Shown here: in pieces, positions 37,545 through 51,882 of the stretch
Numbering within the stretch: position 1 is the stretch's first letter
Layout: each line of letters starts with the position of its first letter
Source of the DNA: Lachnospiraceae bacterium
GTDB lineage: Bacteria > Bacillota > Clostridia > Lachnospirales > Lachnospiraceae
DNA: 56,041 bases
Direction of reading: 5' to 3'
Assembly: GCA_021205755.1 (NCBI GenBank)
Contig: JAJPWX010000061.1
Location: forward strand, 1-56,041
Position numbers and translations under genes: made by a program
Notes under the pieces: generated by a model
Databases searched by the model: none
Told to the model about the DNA's origin: nothing
The model's input: only the letters and a program-made list of their open reading frames with translations

Positions 37545-39224
37545 TTATCCCTCTGAGGCCTGTTTTACCGCCATATGGTTAATCGCGGTCAGAAGCGCAT
37601 CCACGGAAGCGCGGATGATATCGACATCGATTCCGGCTCCCCAGTGAAGCGCGCCTGTCTTTTTCTCACGGATACCTACATAGGCAATCGCACGGGAACT
37701 GGAGCTCTGCTCAAGCGCATGCTCTTCATAGGTGACCAGATCATACTCCAGACGGAAATGGCGCTTCATAGCGTTGCTCACCGCATTCAGACGACCGTTG
37801 CCGGAAGCCTTAATTACATTCGTCTTACCGTCACAGGTCACCGTCACCTCCGCAATGATGCCATTATGCTGCTTGAAATGCATCTCCGGAATGCTGTACG
37901 GTTCAGTAATATTCTCAAACTTATCTTTGAAAAGCTGGAAAATCTCCTCCGGGAGCAATTCCTTATGAAGCTCGTCGGAAACACCTTTCGCCGCATACCC
38001 CATTGCTTCGCGCATTTTCTTTGGAAGCTTCAGGCCATAATTCTGTTCCAGAATATAGCCGACGCCTCCCTTGCCGGACTGACTGTTAATACGAATGACG
38101 TCCGCGTCGTAAGAACGGCCGATATCCGTCGGATCAATCGGAAGATAAGGCACCGTCCACGTATCACAGTGATTCTCCTCCCGGTATTTCATGCCCTTCG
38201 CGATTGCGTCCTGATGCGAACCAGAGAACGCAGCAAACACCAGAGCGCCTGCATATGGACTTCTCTCGTCCACTTTCATGCCGGTATATTTCTCATATGC
38301 CTCCGTAATCTTTGTCATATCATTGAAATTCAGCTCCGGATCTACGCCCTGCGCATACATATTCATGCCAAGTGTCACGATATCCACATTGCCGGTGCGT
38401 TCGCCATTTCCAAAAAGAGTGCCCTCAATGCGGTCCGCGCCCGCCAGCATTCCCATCTCTGCGTCAGAAATACCGCAGCCTCTGTCATTGTGCGGATGCA
38501 GAGAAAGAACGACATTTTCTCTGTATTTCAGATGTTCATTCATATACTCAATCTGGCTCGCGTACACATGCGGCATCGACATCTGTACGGTACTTGGCAG
38601 ATTGATGATCGCTTTGCGATCCGCCGTCGGCTTCCAGACATCCAGCACTGCATTGCAGACTTCTGCCGCATACTCTACCTCCGTGCCTGTAAAGCTCTCC
38701 GGGCTGTATTCGAAGCGGTATTTTTCTCCTGCCTCATCGGTAAGCTGCTGCAGAAGCTTTGCTCCGTCTACGGCAATTTTCAGGATTTCCTCTTTCGACA
38801 TATGGAAGACCTGCTCCCGCTGTGCCAGAGAAGTTGAATTGTATACATGCACAATCGCGTTTTTCGCACCTTTCAGCGCGTCAAAGGTTTTGCGGATGAT
38901 ATGTTCACGCGCCTGGGTCAGTACCTGCAGGGTCACGTCATCCGGAACCAGATCTTCTTCAATCAGGCGGCGAAGAAACTGGAATTCCGTATCAGAAGCC
39001 GCCGGAAAGCCAACCTCGATCTCCTTAAATCCGACTTCAACCAGAAGCTTGAAAAAGCTGATTTTCTGATCCAGGGTCATCGGCACCACCAGAGCCTGAT
39101 TGCCGTCGCGCAAATCCACACTGCACCAGATGGGTGCATGGTCCACATATTCCTTTTCAGCCCATTTCATACATCTTTCGGGGGGCATAAAATACTGGCG
39201 GGTATACTTTTTGGGGTTCATCAT
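37545..39224 (-). CDS. leuA: 2-isopropylmalate synthase
   Basis: About 559 residues from ATG 39224 (gaaggag 8 nt upstream); the frame extends upstream into repeat sequence and is rejected there. The catalytic HMGL-like TIM barrel has WCSVDLRDGNQALV and LSLHPHNDRGCGISDAEMGMLAGADRIEGT; the C-terminal regulatory LeuA dimerisation domain spans about 435-550. It condenses 2-ketoisovalerate with acetyl-CoA as the first step of leucine synthesis and is normally inhibited by leucine. Expression is also controlled by the T-box leader described below. Confidence 0.95.
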   Translation of the reverse strand: MMNPKKYTRQYFMPPERCMKWAEKEYVDHAPIWCSVDLRDGNQALVVPMTLDQKISFFKLLVEVGFKEIEVGFPAASDTEFQFLRRLIEEDLVPDDVTLQVLTQAREHIIRKTFDALKGAKNAIVHVYNSTSLAQREQVFHMSKEEILKIAVDGAKLLQQLTDEAGEKYRFEYSPESFTGTEVEYAAEVCNAVLDVWKPTADRKAIINLPSTVQMSMPHVYASQIEYMNEHLKYRENVVLSLHPHNDRGCGISDAEMGMLAGADRIEGTLFGNGERTGNVDIVTLGMNMYAQGVDPELNFNDMTKITEAYEKYTGMKVDERSPYAGALVFAAFSGSHQDAIAKGMKYREENHCDTWTVPYLPIDPTDIGRSYDADVIRINSQSGKGGVGYILEQNYGLKLPKKMREAMGYAAKGVSDELHKELLPEEIFQLFKDKFENITEPYSIPEMHFKQHNGIIAEVTVTCDGKTNVIKASGNGRLNAVSNAMKRHFRLEYDLVTYEEHALEQSSSSRAIAYVGIREKKTGALHWGAGIDVDIIRASVDALLTAINHMAVKQASEG

Positions 39225-39258
39225 AATGCTTGTCTCCTTCCTGAACATTTGCTGCTGG

Positions 39259-39291
39259 CGCAACGCCTGTCTTTTCATTTTGCTGCTGCTT
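39259..39291. repeat. 33-bp direct repeat, copy 1
   Basis: cgcaacgcctg (39259-39269) followed by tcttttcattttgctgctgctt. It is repeated with two mismatches at 39426-39458, bracketing the structured repeat below. A shorter relative (ttttcattttctgctgc) lies at 42105-42121 before the secreted-protein gene. Confidence 0.8.
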
Positions 39292-39298
39292 CACTGGA

Positions 39299-39403
39299 TT
39301 CAAATCAGCAGGCCGCAAACCCGCCTGCTTCGCAGGCTATACGCTGCTGACGCAGCTTCTGTTTGTGGCTGATGGGAGATTCTCTCCCATCCCAAAATGA
39401 AAA
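39299..39403 (+). repeat. Dispersed multi-hairpin repeat, copy 1
   Basis: This 105-bp element contains hairpins gcctgc-ttc-gcaggc (39323-39337), a gctgctgacgcagc stem and a perfect 9-bp stem gatgggaga/tctcccatc with loop ttc (39371-39391). A second copy lies inverted at 51781-51882. It is part of the leuA leader RNA, between the T-box terminator and the start codon. Confidence 0.75.
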
Positions 39404-39410
39404 CTCAGTC

Positions 39411-39430
39411 TTTTGCGAGCAAGCTCGCAA
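39411..39430. repeat. Palindrome ttgcgagcaagctcgcaa
   Basis: An 18-bp near-perfect palindrome just before direct-repeat copy 2, part of the leuA leader repeat complex. Confidence 0.6.
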
Positions 39431-39458
39431 CGCCTGCTTTTTCATTTTGCTGCTGCTT
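39426..39458. repeat. 33-bp direct repeat, copy 2
   Basis: cgcaacgcctg (39426-39436) then ctttttcattttgctgctgctt. With copy 1 it flanks 134 bp that hold the multi-hairpin repeat. Confidence 0.8.
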
Positions 39459-39471
39459 TGAATCTTTACAC

Positions 39472-39815
39472 AAAAAATCCGCCTCTTTCGGCTGTGTGCC
39501 TCAAGAGACGGAAGATTACAAAACCTTTCGCGGTACCACTCTCATTTATGATCGCTCATACACTCTACGGACACGGACTGCAATCCATTCGTACTGCTTT
39601 CTCGAAGCACATCCAAATCTGTCAGTCTTATATCCTTCCCATGGTAACGGTCGGGTGCCGTCTGTGTCTACTCTGCTTTCTGCAATCCAGGATCTCAAAG
39701 AATTGTTCTGAAACCTGATACTGTAAAAAGATTTCGGACAGCCGCTCGGGAGCGAGTTCCTCTGACTTCTCCTAATGTCTCGCACCCTCCGGCATCTCTC
39801 TGGAAAAAGAAAATC
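39472..39815 (-). promoter_or_regulatory. T-box riboswitch controlling leuA (tRNA-Leu)
   Basis: On the minus strand the core AGTGGTACCGCG (39529-39540) is the T-box sequence that pairs with the tRNA acceptor end and forms the antiterminator. Downstream is a terminator, stem ccgtctctt/aagaggcgg (39479-39511) followed by TTTTTT. Upstream are an agagag K-turn-like motif and a ggtgcgag motif of stem I. A CTC leucine triplet at 39754-39756 is a plausible specifier, consistent with leuA, though the full stem I fold was not computed. Uncharged tRNA-Leu would permit read-through. Confidence 0.9.
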
Positions 39816-39868
39816 AGTGTACTATTCTCCGTCATCGCATTTTGCAATGTTGTTTTTCAACTTTTGCC

Positions 39869-39916: not shown

Positions 39917-42073
39917 TTATACTTCCGGGCGCTCCACTGCGTAACCATCAAAACTGTCAGTCGTAGAAGCTCCGGACGTATCGGCGCTGTCGCTGTATGA
40001 TTCTACGGTAACGGTATAAGCGCTGCTTCCTTCTGCGTAAACCGTTCCGTCTGTCCCTACCACTGAGACACTGTTGCCATCAGCATCGACAATTGTGCCG
40101 CTGCAAGAAAGACTTGTCACGGTGCTGTCGCCGGTCACAACCCAGGTAGAATCTTCACTAATAATCACGTTGCAGTAACCGCTGCCGCCGTTTCCGGCCC
40201 AGGTTTCATCATTTACAAAGGCGCCGGTCAGTGTGCTGCCGTCCGTCATATAGAAATCAAGTGTACTGATGCTGTCCCAGATCACATCGCCATCCATAAC
40301 CTGGCTGATCGCGGTAAACAGGCAGTCAGAGCCATTGCTGCCGGTGGTGCCCCAGCCTCTGGAATTTGTGTTGCCGGTACACTGCAGGAAGAACTCACAG
40401 TCATCCGCTGCCGTGATTTCTACATTCTCCAGCGTGATTGTGCATTCTGTGTTCGTTGTATAAAACAGACCGCCGTTCGTGGAAGTAAGCGTACCGCCTA
40501 CCATCTGGAAAGTGCCGTTGCCTACCTCGGAATCACCGGACATACTCTGATATACAATCACAGTCCAGGTCACATCATTGCGCTCATCGTCCGGAGCCAT
40601 ACCGGTCAGGTCGCAGTCATAAAGACGAAGCGTATTTAAACCCTCGATGCAGACTGCTTCTGCTGCAGTCGACGTCAGCGTTGCTTCACTGATGGCGATT
40701 TCCGCTGTGCAATATACTGCCGGAGAATCAGAGCCATTGGAGGTGTACGTGCCTCCATCAACCACCATTGTGCCGCTGCCGCGATCACTGCGGACCGCTG
40801 CGGAGGAAGTTCCGTTCGTTGTCGCGGTTACATCCCATGCATAAAGCGTTCCGCCGCCCGCCACATGAATGCCGCCAGAGGTATTCAGCTGCGTGTCAAT
40901 CACTGTATCCATGACATATACGACGCCGTCACCGTAAGCAAACACACCAGCGCCTCCCTCCGAATCCGTCGAGATTGTGCTGTCACTGATAATCAGCGTG
41001 CCGTCTGTAGCCAGTAATGCAGCTCCTACCCCATAAAAGCTGGAATTATCGCCGCCTGTGCTATCATCGGATTCTCGGATAATCGTGTCATTGGTAAGAA
41101 TCGCCGTTACATCCTCCGATACCAGAAGCGCGTTTTCATCTGTCCCGGTGGAAGTGAGTTCCTCTGAGTCAATCGTAGTATCTTCTGTAATCGTGTTCGC
41201 GGCATCATAGCTGTCTACACCGGAGGAACTGCCTCCCCCCATGTCTCCACCCATATCGCCGCCCATTCCGGAGCCGCCCATTCCAAAATCACCGGACTGG
41301 ACGGTAACAGTGGCTGCTGTCCCATCTTCATTTAAGGTGATAATGACCGAATCACCAACTTCAATGTCTGAGAGTGTGATTTCCTCTATCTCAGTGGAAC
41401 CGCCCATTCCAGATCCGCCTTCCCCCATGGAGCCGTCTCCGCCATCGCCCATATCGAATGGTGCTTCACCTCCCTCATCGGACGGTGCCTCACCTCCTTC
41501 ATCGGACGGCGCCTCGCCTCCCTCATCGGACGGTGCCTCGCCTCTTTCATCCGTCGGTGCTTCACTGCCTTCATCCGTCGGTGCTTCACCGTCTCCATCC
41601 GGCTTTTCCATCGCTTCCCCGTCCGCAAAATCTGAGCCATTGTTTCCGCCACCCATACCGCCGCTTGCTTTCAGGTACTGCGTATCTTCAGTCAGCGTAA
41701 CGGTCTGGGTTTCTGTCTCTGCGTCCACCGTCTCAACATCATCCGGAGCTGCGTCACTGCCTTCTTCGCCCATTTCTCCGTCTGCAGAAGCTTCGCCGCC
41801 ATCTGCCTCTTCACCAGCATCCTCTGGTTTTTCCATGGCCTGGCCGCCCATGCCAGTCGTAATGGAAACGGTAATATAATCTTCGCCAATCTCTGTCACG
41901 GTTCCCATTACCATCTGGGAAACTTCCTGCGCATCATCTGGTAAATCTGCCGGTGTTCCTTCTCCATCCACTGCATCCGCGACAATCTCTGTCTGACTCT
42001 CTTCCGCATACGCTGCGGTCGGTACTGCCGTAATGACCAGCCCCATCAGCACTGCGATTTGTCTTTTCTTCAT
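39917..42073 (-). CDS. Secreted acidic repeat protein with probable beta-helix region
   Basis: 718 residues with a Sec signal peptide (KKRQIAVLMGLVITAVPTAAYAEES). No family was recognised. Residues about 60-285 are acidic and low-complexity: Gly/Met/Asp-rich runs (GGSGMGGDMGGDMGGG) and six 8-residue repeats of the type GGEAPSDE. Residues about 290-700 have many short Thr/Ser/Val-rich strands spaced like a right-handed parallel beta-helix (GGTLYAWDVTATTNG, DGGTYTSNGSDSPAVYC). There is no LPXTG or membrane anchor at the C-terminus, so it may be released or bound by other means. The codon usage matches its neighbours. Confidence 0.85.
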   Translation of the reverse strand: MKKRQIAVLMGLVITAVPTAAYAEESQTEIVADAVDGEGTPADLPDDAQEVSQMVMGTVTEIGEDYITVSITTGMGGQAMEKPEDAGEEADGGEASADGEMGEEGSDAAPDDVETVDAETETQTVTLTEDTQYLKASGGMGGGNNGSDFADGEAMEKPDGDGEAPTDEGSEAPTDERGEAPSDEGGEAPSDEGGEAPSDEGGEAPFDMGDGGDGSMGEGGSGMGGSTEIEEITLSDIEVGDSVIITLNEDGTAATVTVQSGDFGMGGSGMGGDMGGDMGGGSSSGVDSYDAANTITEDTTIDSEELTSTGTDENALLVSEDVTAILTNDTIIRESDDSTGGDNSSFYGVGAALLATDGTLIISDSTISTDSEGGAGVFAYGDGVVYVMDTVIDTQLNTSGGIHVAGGGTLYAWDVTATTNGTSSAAVRSDRGSGTMVVDGGTYTSNGSDSPAVYCTAEIAISEATLTSTAAEAVCIEGLNTLRLYDCDLTGMAPDDERNDVTWTVIVYQSMSGDSEVGNGTFQMVGGTLTSTNGGLFYTTNTECTITLENVEITAADDCEFFLQCTGNTNSRGWGTTGSNGSDCLFTAISQVMDGDVIWDSISTLDFYMTDGSTLTGAFVNDETWAGNGGSGYCNVIISEDSTWVVTGDSTVTSLSCSGTIVDADGNSVSVVGTDGTVYAEGSSAYTVTVESYSDSADTSGASTTDSFDGYAVERPEV
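41460..41603 (-). repeat. Six 24-bp tandem repeats inside the secreted-protein gene
   Basis: Units start at 41460, 41484, 41508, 41532, 41556 and 41580 and encode the 8-residue repeat (GEAPSDEG type). Being a multiple of three, gains and losses keep the frame. Units 1-3 are more alike than units 4-6. Confidence 0.9.
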
Positions 42074-42476: not shown

Positions 42477-44894
42477 TTACGGTTTTACGACAATGTTTAC
42501 AATCTTCTTCGGCACATAGATTTCCTTCACTACCGTGCCGGACAGCTTCGCTCCAAGTGCCTCACGCCCCTGTGCGATCGCATCTTCCTTTGAGATGTCG
42601 ACCGGGATGGAGATGACTGCTTTGGTCTTGCCATTGATCTGTACCGGAATCTCGATTTCATCGTCCTTCATCGCGTCCGCATCTGCTTCCGGCCATGTGG
42701 TATGGAAAACAGAATCCGTATGCCCGTACATCTCCCAGAGTTCCTCCGTAATGTGCGGTGCGAACGGCGCAAGCAGCTGGATGAAGGTCTCAATGGTCTC
42801 ACGGTCAACGCCGCCGGATTTTCTTGATACCTCGATCAGCTTATTGTTGTACTCCATGAAACCGGAAATAACCGTATTCAAACTGAAGCTTTCCAGACGC
42901 TGAGTGATGTCATACACCAGCTTATGCCGAATCTTGACCATTTCTTTGGTCTCTGCCACGTTCGCTTCCAGGCTGTCGCAGGCGAGCTTCCAGAAACGGT
43001 TCAGGAAACGGTAAACACCGTCGATGCCGCGGTCATCCCACTCTGCATCGAGTTCCGGCGGTCCAACAAAAAGCTCATACATACGCAGCGAGTCACAGCC
43101 ATAGTCGCGCACCAGATCGTCCGGGGATACCACATTCCCCTTGGACTTACTCATCTTAATGCCGTTCTTACCGGTGATCATTCCCTGGTTGAACAGCTTC
43201 TGGAACGGCTCGTCAAAGTCGATCACGCCGATATCACACAGGAACTTCGTATAAAAACGGGAGTACAGAAGATGCAGTACTGCGTGCTCCACACCGCCGA
43301 TATACATATCAACCGGCAGATACTTGTCTGCTTTCTCTCTGGAAACCAGTTCTTTATCATTTTTGTTGTCCACATAGCGCAGGAAATACCACGAAGAACC
43401 CGCCCACTGAGGCATGGTGTTCGTTTCACGCTTCGCATCTGCGCCGCAGACCGGACATTTGCAATTTACCCACTCGTCAATCGCGGCCAGCGGAGATTCT
43501 CCTGTGCCGGTCGGCTCATAAGACTCTACCTCCGGCAGACGCAGCGGCAGTTCTTCCTCCGGAACCGGAACATTTCCGCAATGCGGACAATGGATGATCG
43601 GAATCGGCTCACCCCAATAGCGCTGACGAGAGAATACCCAGTCGCGCAGTTTATAATTCACCGTCGCACGGCCGATGCCCATCTCTTCAATGATGTGCGG
43701 CGCTTCTTTTTTCAGCACTGCCGACTCCATACCATTCCACTCGCCGGAATTGATCATCGTTCCGGAAGCAGCGGTATAAGCCTCGGTCATATTTTCAATC
43801 TCCTGGCCATCCTTCGCGATAACCTGAATGATTGGAATGTTGAATTTGGTCGCAAACTCAAAGTCACGGTCGTCATGCGCCGGTACGCACATAATCGCGC
43901 CGGTACCGTAATCCGCAAGCACATAATCAGAAAGCCAGATCGGAATCTTCTTGCCGTTCAGCGGGTTAATCGCGTAGGAGCCGGTAAACACACCCGTCTT
44001 TTCCTTATCCTGCATACGGTCAACATTCGAACGCATGGAAGAATCAAAGATATATTTCTCTACATCCGCTTTCGTCTCCGGCGTCGCCAGAGAAGCGGCA
44101 AGCGCATGCTCCGGGGCAAGTACCATAAACGTCGCGCCGTGCAGCGTATCCGGGCGGGTCGTGTAGACAGTAATCTTCTCATCCCTTCCGTCTACAGGGA
44201 AGTCCACTTCAGCTCCATAGGATTTGCCAATCCAGTCGGTCTGCATCTTCTTTACTTTCTCCGGCCAATCCAGCTTATCCAGATCATTCAGAAGACGATC
44301 CGCGTATTTCGTAATGCGCAGCATCCACTGACGCATATTCTTCTTCGTCACCGGAGAGCCGCAGCGCTCACAGCAGCCATTGACAACTTCTTCATTCGCC
44401 AGGCCAGTCTTGCAGGACGGACACCAGTTGATCGGGAACTCCTTCTCATAGGCCAGTCCATTTTTAAACATCTGGACAAAGATCCACTGCGTCCACTTAT
44501 AAAACTCCGGATCTGTCGTATTTACCTCGCGGTCCCAATCATAGATCGCGGAGATATCGTTGATCTGCTTTTTGATATTCTTCACATTCTCAGCGGTCGA
44601 AATCGCCGGGTGGATATGCTTTTTAATCGCATAGTTCTCCGCAGGAAGGCCGAACGCATCCCATCCCATCGGATGAATCAAGTAATACCCCTGCATCAGC
44701 TTGTATCTGCTCCAGACATCTGAGATCACGTATCCTCTCCAGTGACCTACATGAAGTCCATTTCCGGACGGATATGGAAACATATCCAGACAATAATATT
44801 TCGGTTTCTTGCCATCGTCCACATTCACCGGGTGCTCCTCCCAGTGTGCTCTCCACTTCTGTTCGATGGCTCTGTGATTATAAGGTGCTGCCAT
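42477..44894 (-). CDS. leuS: Leucyl-tRNA synthetase
   Basis: 805 residues from ATG 44894 with aggagg 8-9 nt upstream; the frame runs further back into a repeat and is rejected there. HIGH-type motif PYPSGNGLHVGHWRG, the zinc-like knuckle CPSCKTGLANEEVVNGCCERCG, an editing domain (about 220-405), the KMSKS motif (MSKSKGNVVSPDD) and the C-terminal anticodon and tail domains are present. It charges tRNA-Leu; the leuA T-box senses the same tRNA pool. No T-box precedes leuS. Confidence 0.97.
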   Translation of the reverse strand: MAAPYNHRAIEQKWRAHWEEHPVNVDDGKKPKYYCLDMFPYPSGNGLHVGHWRGYVISDVWSRYKLMQGYYLIHPMGWDAFGLPAENYAIKKHIHPAISTAENVKNIKKQINDISAIYDWDREVNTTDPEFYKWTQWIFVQMFKNGLAYEKEFPINWCPSCKTGLANEEVVNGCCERCGSPVTKKNMRQWMLRITKYADRLLNDLDKLDWPEKVKKMQTDWIGKSYGAEVDFPVDGRDEKITVYTTRPDTLHGATFMVLAPEHALAASLATPETKADVEKYIFDSSMRSNVDRMQDKEKTGVFTGSYAINPLNGKKIPIWLSDYVLADYGTGAIMCVPAHDDRDFEFATKFNIPIIQVIAKDGQEIENMTEAYTAASGTMINSGEWNGMESAVLKKEAPHIIEEMGIGRATVNYKLRDWVFSRQRYWGEPIPIIHCPHCGNVPVPEEELPLRLPEVESYEPTGTGESPLAAIDEWVNCKCPVCGADAKRETNTMPQWAGSSWYFLRYVDNKNDKELVSREKADKYLPVDMYIGGVEHAVLHLLYSRFYTKFLCDIGVIDFDEPFQKLFNQGMITGKNGIKMSKSKGNVVSPDDLVRDYGCDSLRMYELFVGPPELDAEWDDRGIDGVYRFLNRFWKLACDSLEANVAETKEMVKIRHKLVYDITQRLESFSLNTVISGFMEYNNKLIEVSRKSGGVDRETIETFIQLLAPFAPHITEELWEMYGHTDSVFHTTWPEADADAMKDDEIEIPVQINGKTKAVISIPVDISKEDAIAQGREALGAKLSGTVVKEIYVPKKIVNIVVKP

Positions 44895-44915
44895 TTTTTC
44901 ACTCCTCCTAATTCC

Positions 44916-44997
44916 TGTCCCGCATTGGTTTTTATGCGGGATCTGTTCCGATTTGCGAAGCAAATCGAGAACACTACCGCAGGCCGCGCCATTGCGC
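44916..44997. repeat. 82-bp palindromic element, copy A (leuS leader)
   Basis: It differs from copy B at 45720-45801 at only four positions. Hairpins: cccgcat/atgcggg and gatttgc-gaa-gcaaatc. It lies just upstream of the leuS ribosome-binding site, so it is in the leuS 5' leader. Read on the plus strand it stays open in the same frame that copy B uses inside a protein. Confidence 0.9.
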
Positions 44998-45004
44998 GCT
45001 TATT

Positions 45005-45488
45005 CCCCGTTATTCTATGCCCGAACAGCGGTTTTTGTCAAGTTATTGTTATCCTTTCTGCATAGCCAATTCATTACAGTGAAATGAAAATTTAAATTCC
45101 ACAACTCGGGGGTACAAGTGGAATTCAGTCTTACTCAAAATTCCACTTGTATTTCCGGCGTTCGCAGCAAAAACCTAGTGGAAATCAGTCTTACACCATA
45201 TGGCCTACCCAATTCTACTGGGTAAATGATGGCGTAAATGGAATGAAGTTTTACTCCTTGACTGTGCTTTTAATCCCTGAAAGAGTGAAATCCACCGGAA
45301 AATCACAAATTTTGGTGTGGAAATAAACTTTTCACTTCAGCGCCAATTCATTACTCACTGTATTCTCCGCAAAAAATTCTGTAGCATTTTTCTGCAAATT
45401 GCGTTATTCTTTTCTGAAAGACGATTACTGCCTTTCCATCATTTTTTGCTCTTAACCGAACAATTCCTGTTGCAATTTCGAGGCTAAA
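45005..45488. promoter_or_regulatory. Spacer between leuS and the RluA-family gene
   Basis: 484 bp without a credible gene. It contains the 60-bp-period repeats listed separately, an 11-bp inverted repeat caagtggaatt/aattccacttg (45115-45149), and a tacccaattctactgggta hairpin. Promoter elements for leuS and the RluA gene must lie here but no strong match was seen. Confidence 0.35.
45116..45335 (+). repeat. Four direct repeats with 60-bp period
   Basis: agtggaattcagtcttac-type units start at about 45117, 45177 and 45237, exactly 60 bp apart; a fourth, weaker unit (gtggaaataaacttttcac) is at about 45317. They resemble iterated binding sites, such as the multiple terminal repeats of IS21-like elements or iterons. 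No transposase is nearby. Confidence 0.6.
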
Positions 45489-46706
45489 ATGGACAGAACT
45501 ATTCGTTACCAGATTCAAAAAGAAGACGCCGGAATCCGCGTAGAACAGTTTCTCCGGCGAAGGCTCTATTCCAGGCAAAACCTGGCACAGCTGAAAAAAG
45601 AGAATGCCACCTGGCGAAACGGCCAGACCTGCCCTCTGATGCAAAAACTCTCCTGCGGAGGCATCCTGGAAGTGCATATCCGCGAAGATTCCTGTTCAGA
45701 GAACATTCCGGCCGTATCTTGTCCCGCATTGGTTTCTATGCGGGATATGTTCCGATTTGCGAAGCAAATCGAGAACACTGTCGCAGGCCGCGCCATTGCG
45801 CCTTGCGCAATTTCGAATGCGCGGCTCTCCCGAGCCCTCTCCATTGTCTACGAAGATGAGGATATCCTGGTTGTAAACAAACCCGCAGGCCTTCCCATGC
45901 ATCCCTCCAGGGATAATTTCTATTATTCGCTGGCAAACGCTGTGATGTACTACTATAGAAACAGCGGCCGCTTTGTCTTTCGCTGCACCAATCGGCTTGA
46001 CCGGGATACCTCCGGCCTGACTGTGATTGCAAAGCATCCTGTCAGCGCAAGCGTCCTTGGTTCCATGTTGAAATCGAAGGGAGGCGGATCGCGGCCGGTA
46101 ATGGAACGGGAGTACCTTGCGATTGCCTGCGGCACTGTCACACCGGCAGACGGTACCATTTGCGCTCCGCTTGCTCGCAAAGAGAACGCTCTGTCTGTAA
46201 ATGCATTCCATCCCGTGGCAGCGCCGGAACGCACCATTGAACGCTGTGTCGATTTCGAACATGGGGAGCGAGCCGTCACACACTACCGTGTCCTTGAAAC
46301 AAAAAATGGGTACAGCCTCCTCTCCCTTCTTTTGGAAACAGGCCGTACCCATCAGATCCGTGTCCATATGGCATATCTGGGATATCCGCTTGCCGGAGAT
46401 TACCTGTATCATCCGGCCTGCCGTGCAGCCGCCATCCGGACATACCCTGCTGCGCAGCTGCTGATTCAGGACTCACCGGAGAATGAGGTTCCCACACTGA
46501 TTTCCACGCAGATTCCCTCTGTCACCGTGCCTATGGAAATCACCGGAATTTCCCGGCAGGCGCTCCATGCGTACCGTTTAACGTTTCCCCATCCCATGAC
46601 GGGGAAACGTCTGGAATTCACCGCTCCGCTGCCGGAGGATATGCAAAAATTCGGATTTCATCCCTCCACTCTACATCAATCGGCGGAATGCTTTCCTCTC
46701 TGGTAA
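45489..46706 (+). CDS. RluA-family pseudouridine synthase with in-frame repeat insertion
   Basis: 405 residues. The N-terminus is S4-like (GIRVEQFLRRRLYSRQNLAQLKKE). The catalytic domain starts at about residue 118 (LSIVYEDEDILVVNKPAGLPMHPS) with the catalytic Asp in RCTNRLDRDTSGLTVIAKHP and ETGRTHQIRVHMAYLGYPLAGDYLY. The enzyme isomerises uridine in rRNA or tRNA. Between the domains, residues about 77-117 are encoded by repeat copy B plus a flanking hairpin and have no counterpart in the family. The last 89 bp overlap the opposing GH115 gene. No clear ribosome-binding site was seen at 45489 (cgaggctaaa), so an alternative start is possible. Confidence 0.88.
   Translation: MDRTIRYQIQKEDAGIRVEQFLRRRLYSRQNLAQLKKENATWRNGQTCPLMQKLSCGGILEVHIREDSCSENIPAVSCPALVSMRDMFRFAKQIENTVAGRAIAPCAISNARLSRALSIVYEDEDILVVNKPAGLPMHPSRDNFYYSLANAVMYYYRNSGRFVFRCTNRLDRDTSGLTVIAKHPVSASVLGSMLKSKGGGSRPVMEREYLAIACGTVTPADGTICAPLARKENALSVNAFHPVAAPERTIERCVDFEHGERAVTHYRVLETKNGYSLLSLLLETGRTHQIRVHMAYLGYPLAGDYLYHPACRAAAIRTYPAAQLLIQDSPENEVPTLISTQIPSVTVPMEITGISRQALHAYRLTFPHPMTGKRLEFTAPLPEDMQKFGFHPSTLHQSAECFPLW
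45720..45801 (+). repeat. 82-bp palindromic element, copy B, inside a coding sequence
   Basis: 78 of 82 bases match copy A at 44916-44997. It is in frame within the RluA-family gene and encodes CPALVSMRDMFRFAKQ and IENTVAGRAIA. A further nested hairpin (attgcgc-ctt-gcgcaat inside ccgcgc/gcgcgg) follows to about 45825, extending the inserted block to roughly 120 bp. Confidence 0.9.
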
Positions 46707-51482: not shown

Positions 51483-51780
51483 AAGCGCCTCCTGCATCCT
51501 CCCATAAATGAGTTCTGTTTACGCGATTACTTCATATTAAGTGTAAGCATAACATTTTTCAGGTGGAAATACAATATGGCATCACACTTTTCAGGTGGAA
51601 TTTTGATTAAAATCTACATTTTTCAGGTGATACAAATGTTTGAACAGGAGCAGAAAAGAGTACCACCGACATCCGATGATACTCTTTTACCAACAATCCA
51701 TTCAAAACATTTTTGTAACAGTTCAGAACAGCATCAAAATGAAAAGACAGACTGTGCAGATTTATCTGCTAAAGGCTGTA
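51483..51780. promoter_or_regulatory. Upstream spacer of the DUF4143 gene
   Basis: It contains three 32-bp-period repeats (listed separately) and a hairpin aaaagagta/tactctttt (51654-51688) that is flanked by T-rich or A-rich sequence on both strands and could terminate the SDR transcript. No gene seen. Confidence 0.4.
51553..51630. repeat. Three direct repeats with exact 32-bp period
   Basis: Units catttttcaggtgg (51553), cacttttcaggtgg (51585) and catttttcaggtga (51617) are spaced exactly 32 bp apart, about three DNA turns, with unrelated bases between. This resembles iterated transposase or regulator binding sites. No transposase is present. Confidence 0.75.
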
Positions 51781-51882
51781 TTTTCATTTTGGGATGGGCG
51801 CAACGCCCATCAAGCCACAGATATATGACGCGTTAGCGGCATATAGCCTGCATAGCAGGCGGTCTGCGGCCTGCTGTTCTGA
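51781..51882 (-). repeat. Dispersed multi-hairpin repeat, copy 2 (inverted)
   Basis: The reverse complement of 39299-39403. Stem gatgggcg/cgcccatc (51793-51811, loop caa) replaces gatgggaga/tctcccatc of copy 1, and the gcctgc/gcaggc stem (51846-51860) is conserved while its loop changes from ttc to ata. It sits 20 bp after the SDR stop codon. Confidence 0.75.

What the first reader, a model, noticed from the sequence alone, without database searches (positions are those of the whole stretch)
45720..45801. Palindromic repeat inserted in frame into a conserved RNA-modifying enzyme
Seen: 78 of 82 bases at 45720-45801 match 44916-44997. The second lies inside an RluA-family gene, open in frame, adding about 40 residues (with a flanking hairpin) between the S4-like and catalytic domains; the first is in the leuS leader but is also open in that same frame. 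Known: Rickettsia palindromic elements insert in frame into proteins this way. Inference: this may be a similar selfish element in a Clostridium relative, chosen for a frame that is harmless in a linker.
Basis: partly seen in the sequence, partly recalled or inferred. Interest (0 to 1): 0.78.

Follow-up and report, generated by a model that had tools for sequence, protein, structure and literature searches.

The report
Mobile hairpin repeat inside bacterial enzyme
A tiny jumping DNA piece made of two hairpins has spread through a group of Clostridia and sits inside several protein genes without breaking their reading frame, including an RNA-modifying enzyme here, much as the Rickettsia palindromic elements do.

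Summary
The repeat is real (94% over 85 nt), but the 82 bp are part of a modular ~75-80 bp double-hairpin element: a sequence-variable hairpin (HP1), a G(C/T/A)AG tag, and a bulged hairpin ending GGCTCTCC. A covariance model of the second hairpin gives about 41 copies here (36 at E<1e-3) and matches in 17 of 47 genomes of the genus, own included. In rluA, empty sites prove the insertion: G021, G020, G019 and G015 lack it; G009 carries 81 nt (27 codons) in the linker; the window carries 111 nt (37 codons), including a further in-frame hairpin. Three more in-frame insertions have empty sites: a PNPOx/ferredoxin-like protein, a YolD-like protein and cysteinyl-tRNA synthetase. Flanks show short target-site duplications. 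The rluA copy probably came from the older leuS-leader copy 0.8 kb away. In-frame placement looks like survivorship: element lengths are even modulo 3, and apparent frame-breaking copies exist. G010 (48 matches, listed as 100% complete) shows neither a Y1 (REP-type) transposase nor a reverse transcriptase, so the mobiliser is unknown. It works like RPE/REP elements but fails defining tests of each: a new variant of a known kind.

The parts
45489..46706 (+). rluA-family pseudouridine synthase gene (405 aa) that carries the element in its inter-domain linker
   Evidence: ORF; PF00849 at residues 125-295; empty sites in congeners
45720..45830 (+). double-hairpin element in rluA, orientation HP1 -> core, with one extra nested hairpin; open in the rluA frame
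45721..45746 (+). HP1, first hairpin (GTCCCGCAT...ATGCGGGAT)
   Evidence: sequence; fold
45746..45781 (+). nested 36-nt hairpin segment (12 codons); absent from the rluA copy of G009, identical to the segment in the leuS-leader copy of G009
45783..45786 (+). GCAG tag between HP1 and core (GCAG 51, GTAG 34, GAAG 20, GCAA 1 of 106 copies)
45781..45830 (+). conserved core: bulged hairpin GGCCGCGCC..GGCTCTCC (covariance model R1, 69 bits)
44916..44997 (+). older copy in the leuS leader: HP1, nested hairpin and a core truncated at 44997
   Evidence: weak 12-bit remnant at 44977-45005, E 0.45
42477..44894 (-). leuS; start codon placed at 44894 by reading the sequence (the mechanical ORF runs on to 44963 through the element)

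Best explanation
The 82-bp repeat is most of a short, non-coding, non-autonomous mobile element made of two adjacent hairpins (HP1 - GNAG tag - bulged core hairpin, ~75-80 bp). It occurs in about 41 copies in this genome and in many relatives. It inserts at scattered sites, mostly outside genes and often near a gene start, leaving short target-site duplications (shown statistically and at individual empty sites). The copy in rluA was most likely copied from the older copy in the leuS leader ~0.8 kb away (inferred from shared sequence and presence/absence). It sits in a variable linker between the S4-like and catalytic domains, adds 37 codons there without a stop, and is probably neutral for the enzyme (inferred). 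In-frame placement is what remains after selection has removed frame-breaking insertions (inferred). The moving enzyme acts in trans and is unknown; since HP1 sequences differ widely between copies but remain self-complementary, it probably recognises structure as well as the short GNAG/CTCTCC motifs (inferred).
For: Copies: 44 matches in the own genome at E<=1, the best 41 studied, 36 of them at E<1e-3; 17 of 47 genomes of the genus and 7 of 250 of the family, own genome included in both. rluA empty and filled sites. PNPOx/ferredoxin-like protein: empty GATATGATGCTG, filled GATA-TGAT-[element]-TGAT-GCTG, +81 nt. YolD-like: AACG on both sides, +87 nt. CysS in G010 and G011, empty in G014. Target-site duplications: mean flank match 3.85 against 3.12 (sd 0.11) for re-paired flanks, 0 of 2000 shuffles reach it, 67 copies. 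Structure: 33 of 41 model hits, not selected for HP1, have an adjacent hairpin against 264 of 2000 random positions; 63 distinct HP1 arms (first 10 nt) in 106 copies, own-arm pairing 94-100% and cross-copy pairing 44-54% at pairs 4-8 (these copies were preselected for a stem). Leader origin: leader copies in G000, G009, G015, G019 and G020, rluA copy only in G000 and G009 of the 16 genomes compared at that site; leader and rluA copies of G009 share ATCTTGTCC and CTCTCCCG. Model of RluA: residues 83-114 have pLDDT<50.
Against: No mobiliser was identified. The rluA site itself shows no clean target-site duplication (CATC on both sides, but neighbouring bases changed). The duplications are short, of variable length, and their ends are ambiguous where they merge with the terminal CC/CA; 30 of the 67 copies have a best flank match of only 2 or 3 nt. 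Interior insertions are not only in frame: 10 rows were in frame, 7 shifted and 2 in the same frame with a stop, with orthologous copies counted more than once. The low pLDDT of the insert may only reflect that few aligned sequences cover it. There are no expression or activity data.
Confidence: 0.78

Rival explanations
1. It is a GTAG-tagged REP (repetitive extragenic palindrome) moved by a REP-associated tyrosine (Y1/HUH) transposase.
For: GTAG/GCAG tag directly 5' of an imperfect hairpin, tandem and dispersed copies, intragenic copies: all described for GTAG REPs (PMC3733652). 11 of 17 carrier genomes have at least one Y1 match, against 14 of 30 non-carriers. In the own genome one core copy lies about 330 bp from a Y1 gene (C118).
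Against: No PF01797 match at E<=1e-3 in six carriers (G006, G008, G010, G015, G017, G021; 7 to 82 element matches), G010 being listed as 100% complete. The two Y1 genes of the own genome (140 and 162 aa) look like ordinary IS200 (recalled); only the one in L070 was read at sequence level. Y1 IS200/605-type transposition leaves no target-site duplication (recalled), whereas duplications are seen here.
Confidence: 0.15
2. It is a retroposed hairpin RNA, inserted by target-primed reverse transcription, which would explain variable-length target-site duplications and ragged 5' ends.
For: Matches of 4 to 7 bp between flanks in 37 of 67 copies and a few variable bases before TGTCC. 15 of 17 carriers have a PF00078 match, against 19 of 30 non-carriers.
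Against: G010 (listed as 100% complete, 48 matches) has no PF00078 match at E<=1e-5; neither has G012, which is only 71% complete. The enzyme could have been lost later.
Confidence: 0.06
3. It is a functional structured RNA in 5' leaders (for example a regulator of leuS), and the rluA copy is an accident.
For: In the own genome 15 of 41 copies lie next to a predicted gene 5' side against 7 next to a 3' side (three of the 15 are the proven intragenic ones); leaders include leuS, an asp/asnRS-like gene and an aldolase-like gene (the last two names are recalled).
Against: No Rfam match overlaps an element in ten loci or in 44850-45900 at E<=1; the leader copy is truncated, tandem or rearranged from species to species; copies occur in both orientations and at many unrelated sites, including protein interiors.
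Confidence: 0.08
4. A plain local duplication of 82 bp between the leuS leader and rluA, unrelated to mobility.
For: The two copies are each other's best match in the genome (94%, 132 bits; next by score 76% over 84 nt, 64 bits) and lie 0.8 kb apart.
Against: The shared segment runs close to the element's own ends in G009, and the same element occurs about 41 times in the genome and at insertion sites in other genes.
Confidence: 0.05

Closest known systems
Rickettsia palindromic elements (RPE) and the Wolbachia protein-coding palindromes
   Same: Short palindromic repeats found in frame inside conserved protein genes as well as between genes (PMC2229807 passages; PMC3733652).
   Different: RPE are described there as long stem-loops with terminal inverted repeats, and their target-site duplication is marked '?'. 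Here there are two adjacent hairpins, no pairing of the two ends, and target-site duplications. The host is a different phylum. No sequence comparison with RPE was made.
GTAG-tagged REPs / REPINs with RAYT transposases
   Same: GTAG-like tag 5' of an imperfect hairpin, many dispersed and tandem copies, some intragenic; repeats are reported inside tRNA pseudouridine synthase and tRNA synthetase genes (PMC3733652, section 15).
   Different: No consistent RAYT association here; a second, sequence-variable hairpin beside the tag; target-site duplications. The phyla listed in the passages read do not include Bacillota, and the paper's text holds neither 'clostridi' nor 'lachnospir'.
Double-hairpin elements of fungal and protist mitochondrial DNA
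   Same: Two adjacent hairpins, thought mobile (titles and abstract starts, otherwise recalled).
   Different: Organelle genomes; no shared motif tested.
Bacterial MITEs with reading frames (ERIC, Correia/NEMIS)
   Same: ~100-200-bp non-autonomous elements, target-site duplication, in-frame fusions (PMC2229807 passages).
   Different: Those have terminal inverted repeats (24 bp for Correia and 7 bp for ERIC in that paper's table); none seen here.

Membership tests
Rickettsia palindromic element (RPE) | in-frame insertion inside conserved protein genes, shown by shorter homologues | tested here: met
   rluA, PNPOx-like, YolD-like, CysS
Rickettsia palindromic element (RPE) | single long stem-loop with terminal inverted repeats (~12 bp) | tested here: not met
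   two separate hairpins; ends ATGTCC and CTCTCC do not pair
Rickettsia palindromic element (RPE) | sequence relationship to RPE families | not tested
   no RPE sequence was fetched
GTAG REP | unpaired GTAG-type tag at the 5' side of a palindrome | tested here: met
   GCAG 51, GTAG 34, GAAG 20, GCAA 1 of 106 copies; strictly GTAG in 34
GTAG REP | associated RAYT (Y1 tyrosine transposase) in the host genome | tested here: not met
   PF01797 absent at E<=1e-3 from 6 of 17 carriers including G010; present in 11 of 17 carriers and 14 of 30 non-carriers. Own-genome Y1 genes: L070 shows no core at its ends by eye; L071 was not read at sequence level (one search failed) and has a core copy about 330 bp away
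CGTC REP | unpaired CGTC tag | tested here: not met
   CGTC is present on the other strand in many copies, but its GTC belongs to the HP1 stem
MITE | terminal inverted repeats | tested here: not met
   ends read
MITE | target-site duplication | tested here: met
   67 copies, 0 of 2000 shuffles; exact at the PNPOx-like site
Rfam families | match above the gathering score | tested here: not met
   no family overlaps an element in ten loci or the window

The most novel reading that the evidence does not exclude
A family of mobile elements defined by fold rather than sequence: the HP1 module turns over freely in sequence, the element is moved in trans by an enzyme that is neither a Y1 transposase nor a reverse transcriptase and that reads hairpins plus GNAG/CTCTCC, leaves short variable target-site duplications, and repeatedly writes new 25-40-residue linkers into housekeeping proteins (RluA, CysS, phosphoglucomutase, RecD2) across Lachnospiraceae-like Clostridia.
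Probability: 0.35. Interest if true: 0.78.

Novelty: new variant of a known kind. Interest (0 to 1): 0.6.

Why it matters
In-frame 'protein-coding palindromes' are best known from Rickettsia and Wolbachia, with in-frame REPs in other phyla. A family in Clostridia, with clean empty sites in close relatives and tens of copies per carrier genome, makes it possible to measure how often small insertions are tolerated in essential enzymes. It also poses the question of which enzyme moves structure-defined repeats where neither a RAYT nor a reverse transcriptase is detected.

Tried and rejected
REP/RAYT origin was the first idea after seeing GTAG+hairpin and was tested with PF01797 in the own genome and in the genus: rejected as the general resident mobiliser. 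Retroposition was tested with PF00078: G010 and G012 lack it. A local-duplication-only explanation was rejected by the genome-wide copies. 'The element is built to be in frame' was rejected: scanned lengths modulo 3 are even, and open frames per copy (3.29) are only slightly above dinucleotide shuffles (mean 2.95, maximum 3.25 of 200). A first codon-usage frame caller was too inaccurate (78%) and was replaced by a periodic Markov caller (98% on windows of its own training ORFs, not held-out); with its threshold it still misses the proven in-frame cases of the own genome, so its counts are rough. Rfam gave no overlapping family (one search did find a cobalamin riboswitch about 220 nt from one copy in L009). 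Literature searches for such repeats listed no paper that I recognised as describing them in Lachnospiraceae, Clostridia or Firmicutes; only open-access PMC papers are covered and, apart from two papers, only listings were seen. PMC3733652: abstract, passages and sections 7 and 15 seen; PMC2229807: passages seen. Labels that rest on recall: IS200, asp/asnRS-like, aldolase-like and 2-isopropylmalate synthase.

Full report
Observation. The two stretches match at 94% over 85 nt (44913-44997 and 45717-45801). The second lies in an open 405-codon rluA-family gene, the first just upstream of leuS on the opposite strand. Both fold as hairpins: RNA fold z-score -5.0 for the rluA copy and -2.4 for the leader copy.

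Extent and family. A search of the own genome with 141 nt around the rluA copy gave 26 matches at E<=10, the weakest probably chance, many of them sharing only the 3' part. Reading these showed a modular unit: HP1 (GTCC...GGAC, very variable), a G(C/T/A)AG tag, and a bulged hairpin GGCC(NCGCC)-inner stem-..AT-GGCGCGGC followed by TCTCC. A covariance model of the core from 12 own-genome copies found 44 matches at E<=1 in the own genome; the best 41 were studied (36 at E<1e-3) and the 3 weakest dropped. In the window only the rluA copy is a full core. In the genus 17 of 47 genomes, own included, match at E<=1e-4, with 7 to 123 matches each (lower bounds, since a limited number of candidates is scored; the 123 are in G018, listed with 6% contamination). 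In the family 7 of 250 match and in the class 2 of 391, the own genome and one more of the same family. The copies read in several other genera keep the architecture with different sequences.

Structure. In 33 of 41 own-genome model hits an HP1 hairpin is adjacent to the core, though the model does not contain it, against 264 of 2000 random positions; the window's own copy is among the 8 misses because the extra hairpin intervenes. Among 106 distinct copies that passed a filter requiring a stem, 63 distinct HP1 arms (first 10 nt) occur. Own arms pair in 94-100% at pairs 4-8, where arms swapped between copies pair in 44-54%. Twelve copies with G.A/A.G in place of two outer-stem pairs lower the pairing there to 92 and 93 of 106.

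Insertion into rluA. Congeners G021, G020, G019 and G015 have a 1110-nt gene without it; the more distant G006, G007, G010, G011, G013, G014, G017 and G018 also lack the element. In the linker G009 has 81 nt more (27 codons) and the window 111 nt more (37 codons: residues 80-116 have no counterpart; same count from the alignment). The whole window gene is 105 nt longer than that of G021, because it is 6 nt shorter elsewhere. The window copy contains an additional 36-nt hairpin segment between HP1 and core, identical to the one in the leuS-leader copy of G009, and lacks 6 nt beside the element that G009 has. In a 45-sequence alignment only the window protein (P0001) and P0002, which fits the G009 gene by length and contig length, have the element peptide. 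P0005 and P0007 have other insertions at exactly this linker, so the site tolerates length change. AlphaFold2 gives mean pLDDT 80.1 with residues 83-114 below 50.

Origin of the rluA copy. The leuS leader carries copies in G000, G009, G015, G019 and G020: without the extra hairpin in G019, as a tandem of both types in G015, with it in G009, G020 and G000, and with a truncated core in G000, G019 and the second G015 unit. For G021 the fetched stretch does not reach the leader. Of the genomes compared at rluA only G000 and G009 have the copy there. Shared flanking letters (ATCTTGTCC, CTCTCCCG) between the leader and rluA copies of G009 point to copying from the leader. This is an inference from presence and similarity.

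Other in-frame copies. PNPOx_N/ferredoxin-like protein of G000 and G013 (+81 nt in G000; empty in G010, G011, G012, G014, G016, G018 and G020; G008 and a second, stop-containing G018 paralogue have the element with altered flanks). YolD-like protein of G000 (+87 nt; empty in the eight congeners aligned). CysS of G010 and G011 (28 codons; empty in G014 and G007) in a linker that varies in length throughout the genus. Pfam support: CysS strong; PNPOx_N and YolD only below their cut-offs. Without empty-site tests: phosphoglucomutase in G018, an AAA-ATPase/PD-(D/E)XK protein in six genomes at two sites and in both orientations (Pfam run on one of them), a secreted-looking protein in G000 and G021 (no Pfam match for the G000 one), and RecD2 in G017 with two in-frame copies, though a third copy in the same gene appears to change the frame, so that gene may be broken.

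Out-of-frame copies. Of 113 copies from own and related genomes with 150-nt flanks, the frame caller put 39 between genes, 54 with one coding side, 10 in frame, 7 frame-shifted, 2 in the same frame with a stop, and 1 between opposite genes; orthologous copies are counted more than once, and some of the shifted or stopped rows may be gene-element-gene arrangements. In the own genome it gave 15 with neither side coding, 15 next to a 5' side, 7 next to a 3' side, 3 shifted and 1 with a stop, of 41; the three proven in-frame cases fell under its threshold and count as one-sided. Element lengths are 0/1/2 modulo 3 in 34/40/32 of 106 (scanned element without its target-site duplication). In-frame placement therefore looks like what selection left.

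Mobility. Of 155 scanned rows, 106 passed shape filters and 67 remained after removing tandem and duplicate sites. The longest match between flanks averages 3.85 nt against 3.12 (sd 0.11) for re-paired flanks, with 0 of 2000 shuffles reaching it; 37 of 67 have 4 to 7 nt, 30 have 2 or 3. Individual cases: TGAT at the PNPOx-like site (exact), AACG at the YolD-like site, and ATTAT to ATATTATGGA at CysS with ambiguous ends. The rluA site shows CATC on both sides but with altered neighbours. Y1 transposases are found in 11 of 17 carriers and 14 of 30 non-carriers, reverse transcriptases in 15 of 17 and 19 of 30; G010 has neither. So neither is a general resident mobiliser, though a lost enzyme cannot be excluded.

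Comparison. It behaves like Rickettsia elements and intragenic REPs (PMC3733652; PMC2229807) but lacks the terminal inverted repeats of the former and a consistent RAYT of the latter. I file it as a new variant of small palindromic mobile repeats. What is shown: copies, structure, empty and filled sites, frames, duplication signal. What is inferred: the leader-to-rluA step, the trans-acting enzyme, structure recognition, neutrality for RluA.

The linker insertion of the window was corrected from 105 nt/35 codons (difference of whole genes) to 111 nt/37 codons; the Y1 and reverse-transcriptase tallies for all carriers and non-carriers, and the core copy near one Y1 gene, were added.

Noticed in passing
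window 39501-39844 (-): T-box leader (RF00230, 96 bits) upstream of the 2-isopropylmalate synthase-like ORF at 37545-39278 (gene name recalled).
   Followed up: no
window 39386-39474 and 51710-51798: 89-nt inverted repeat, 73% complementary, 12 kb apart, origin not examined; one copy of a 33-nt direct repeat (39259-39291 / 39426-39458) lies within the first arm.
   Followed up: no
window 41429-41596: 24-nt tandem repeat coding an 8-residue repeat (GEAPSDEG-like) in a secreted-looking 718-aa ORF on the - strand.
   Followed up: no
leuS leader in congeners: L126, L128, L129, L130: Rapidly rearranging leader: single, tandem and truncated element copies, with or without the extra hairpin; may reflect gene conversion between neighbouring copies.
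   Followed up: partly
L092 (G017), ORF 86-1744 and downstream: recD2-like gene holding three element copies, two of them in frame.
   Followed up: partly
L138 and L139 (G008, G016), rluA linker: A different, apparently unrelated in-frame insertion at the same RluA linker.
   Followed up: no
L014, about 1445-1530 (G000:C22 near 77033): Stand-alone copies of the extra hairpin (GTTCTCGATTT..AAATCGGAACAT) side by side outside any core: a possible second hairpin family.
   Followed up: no
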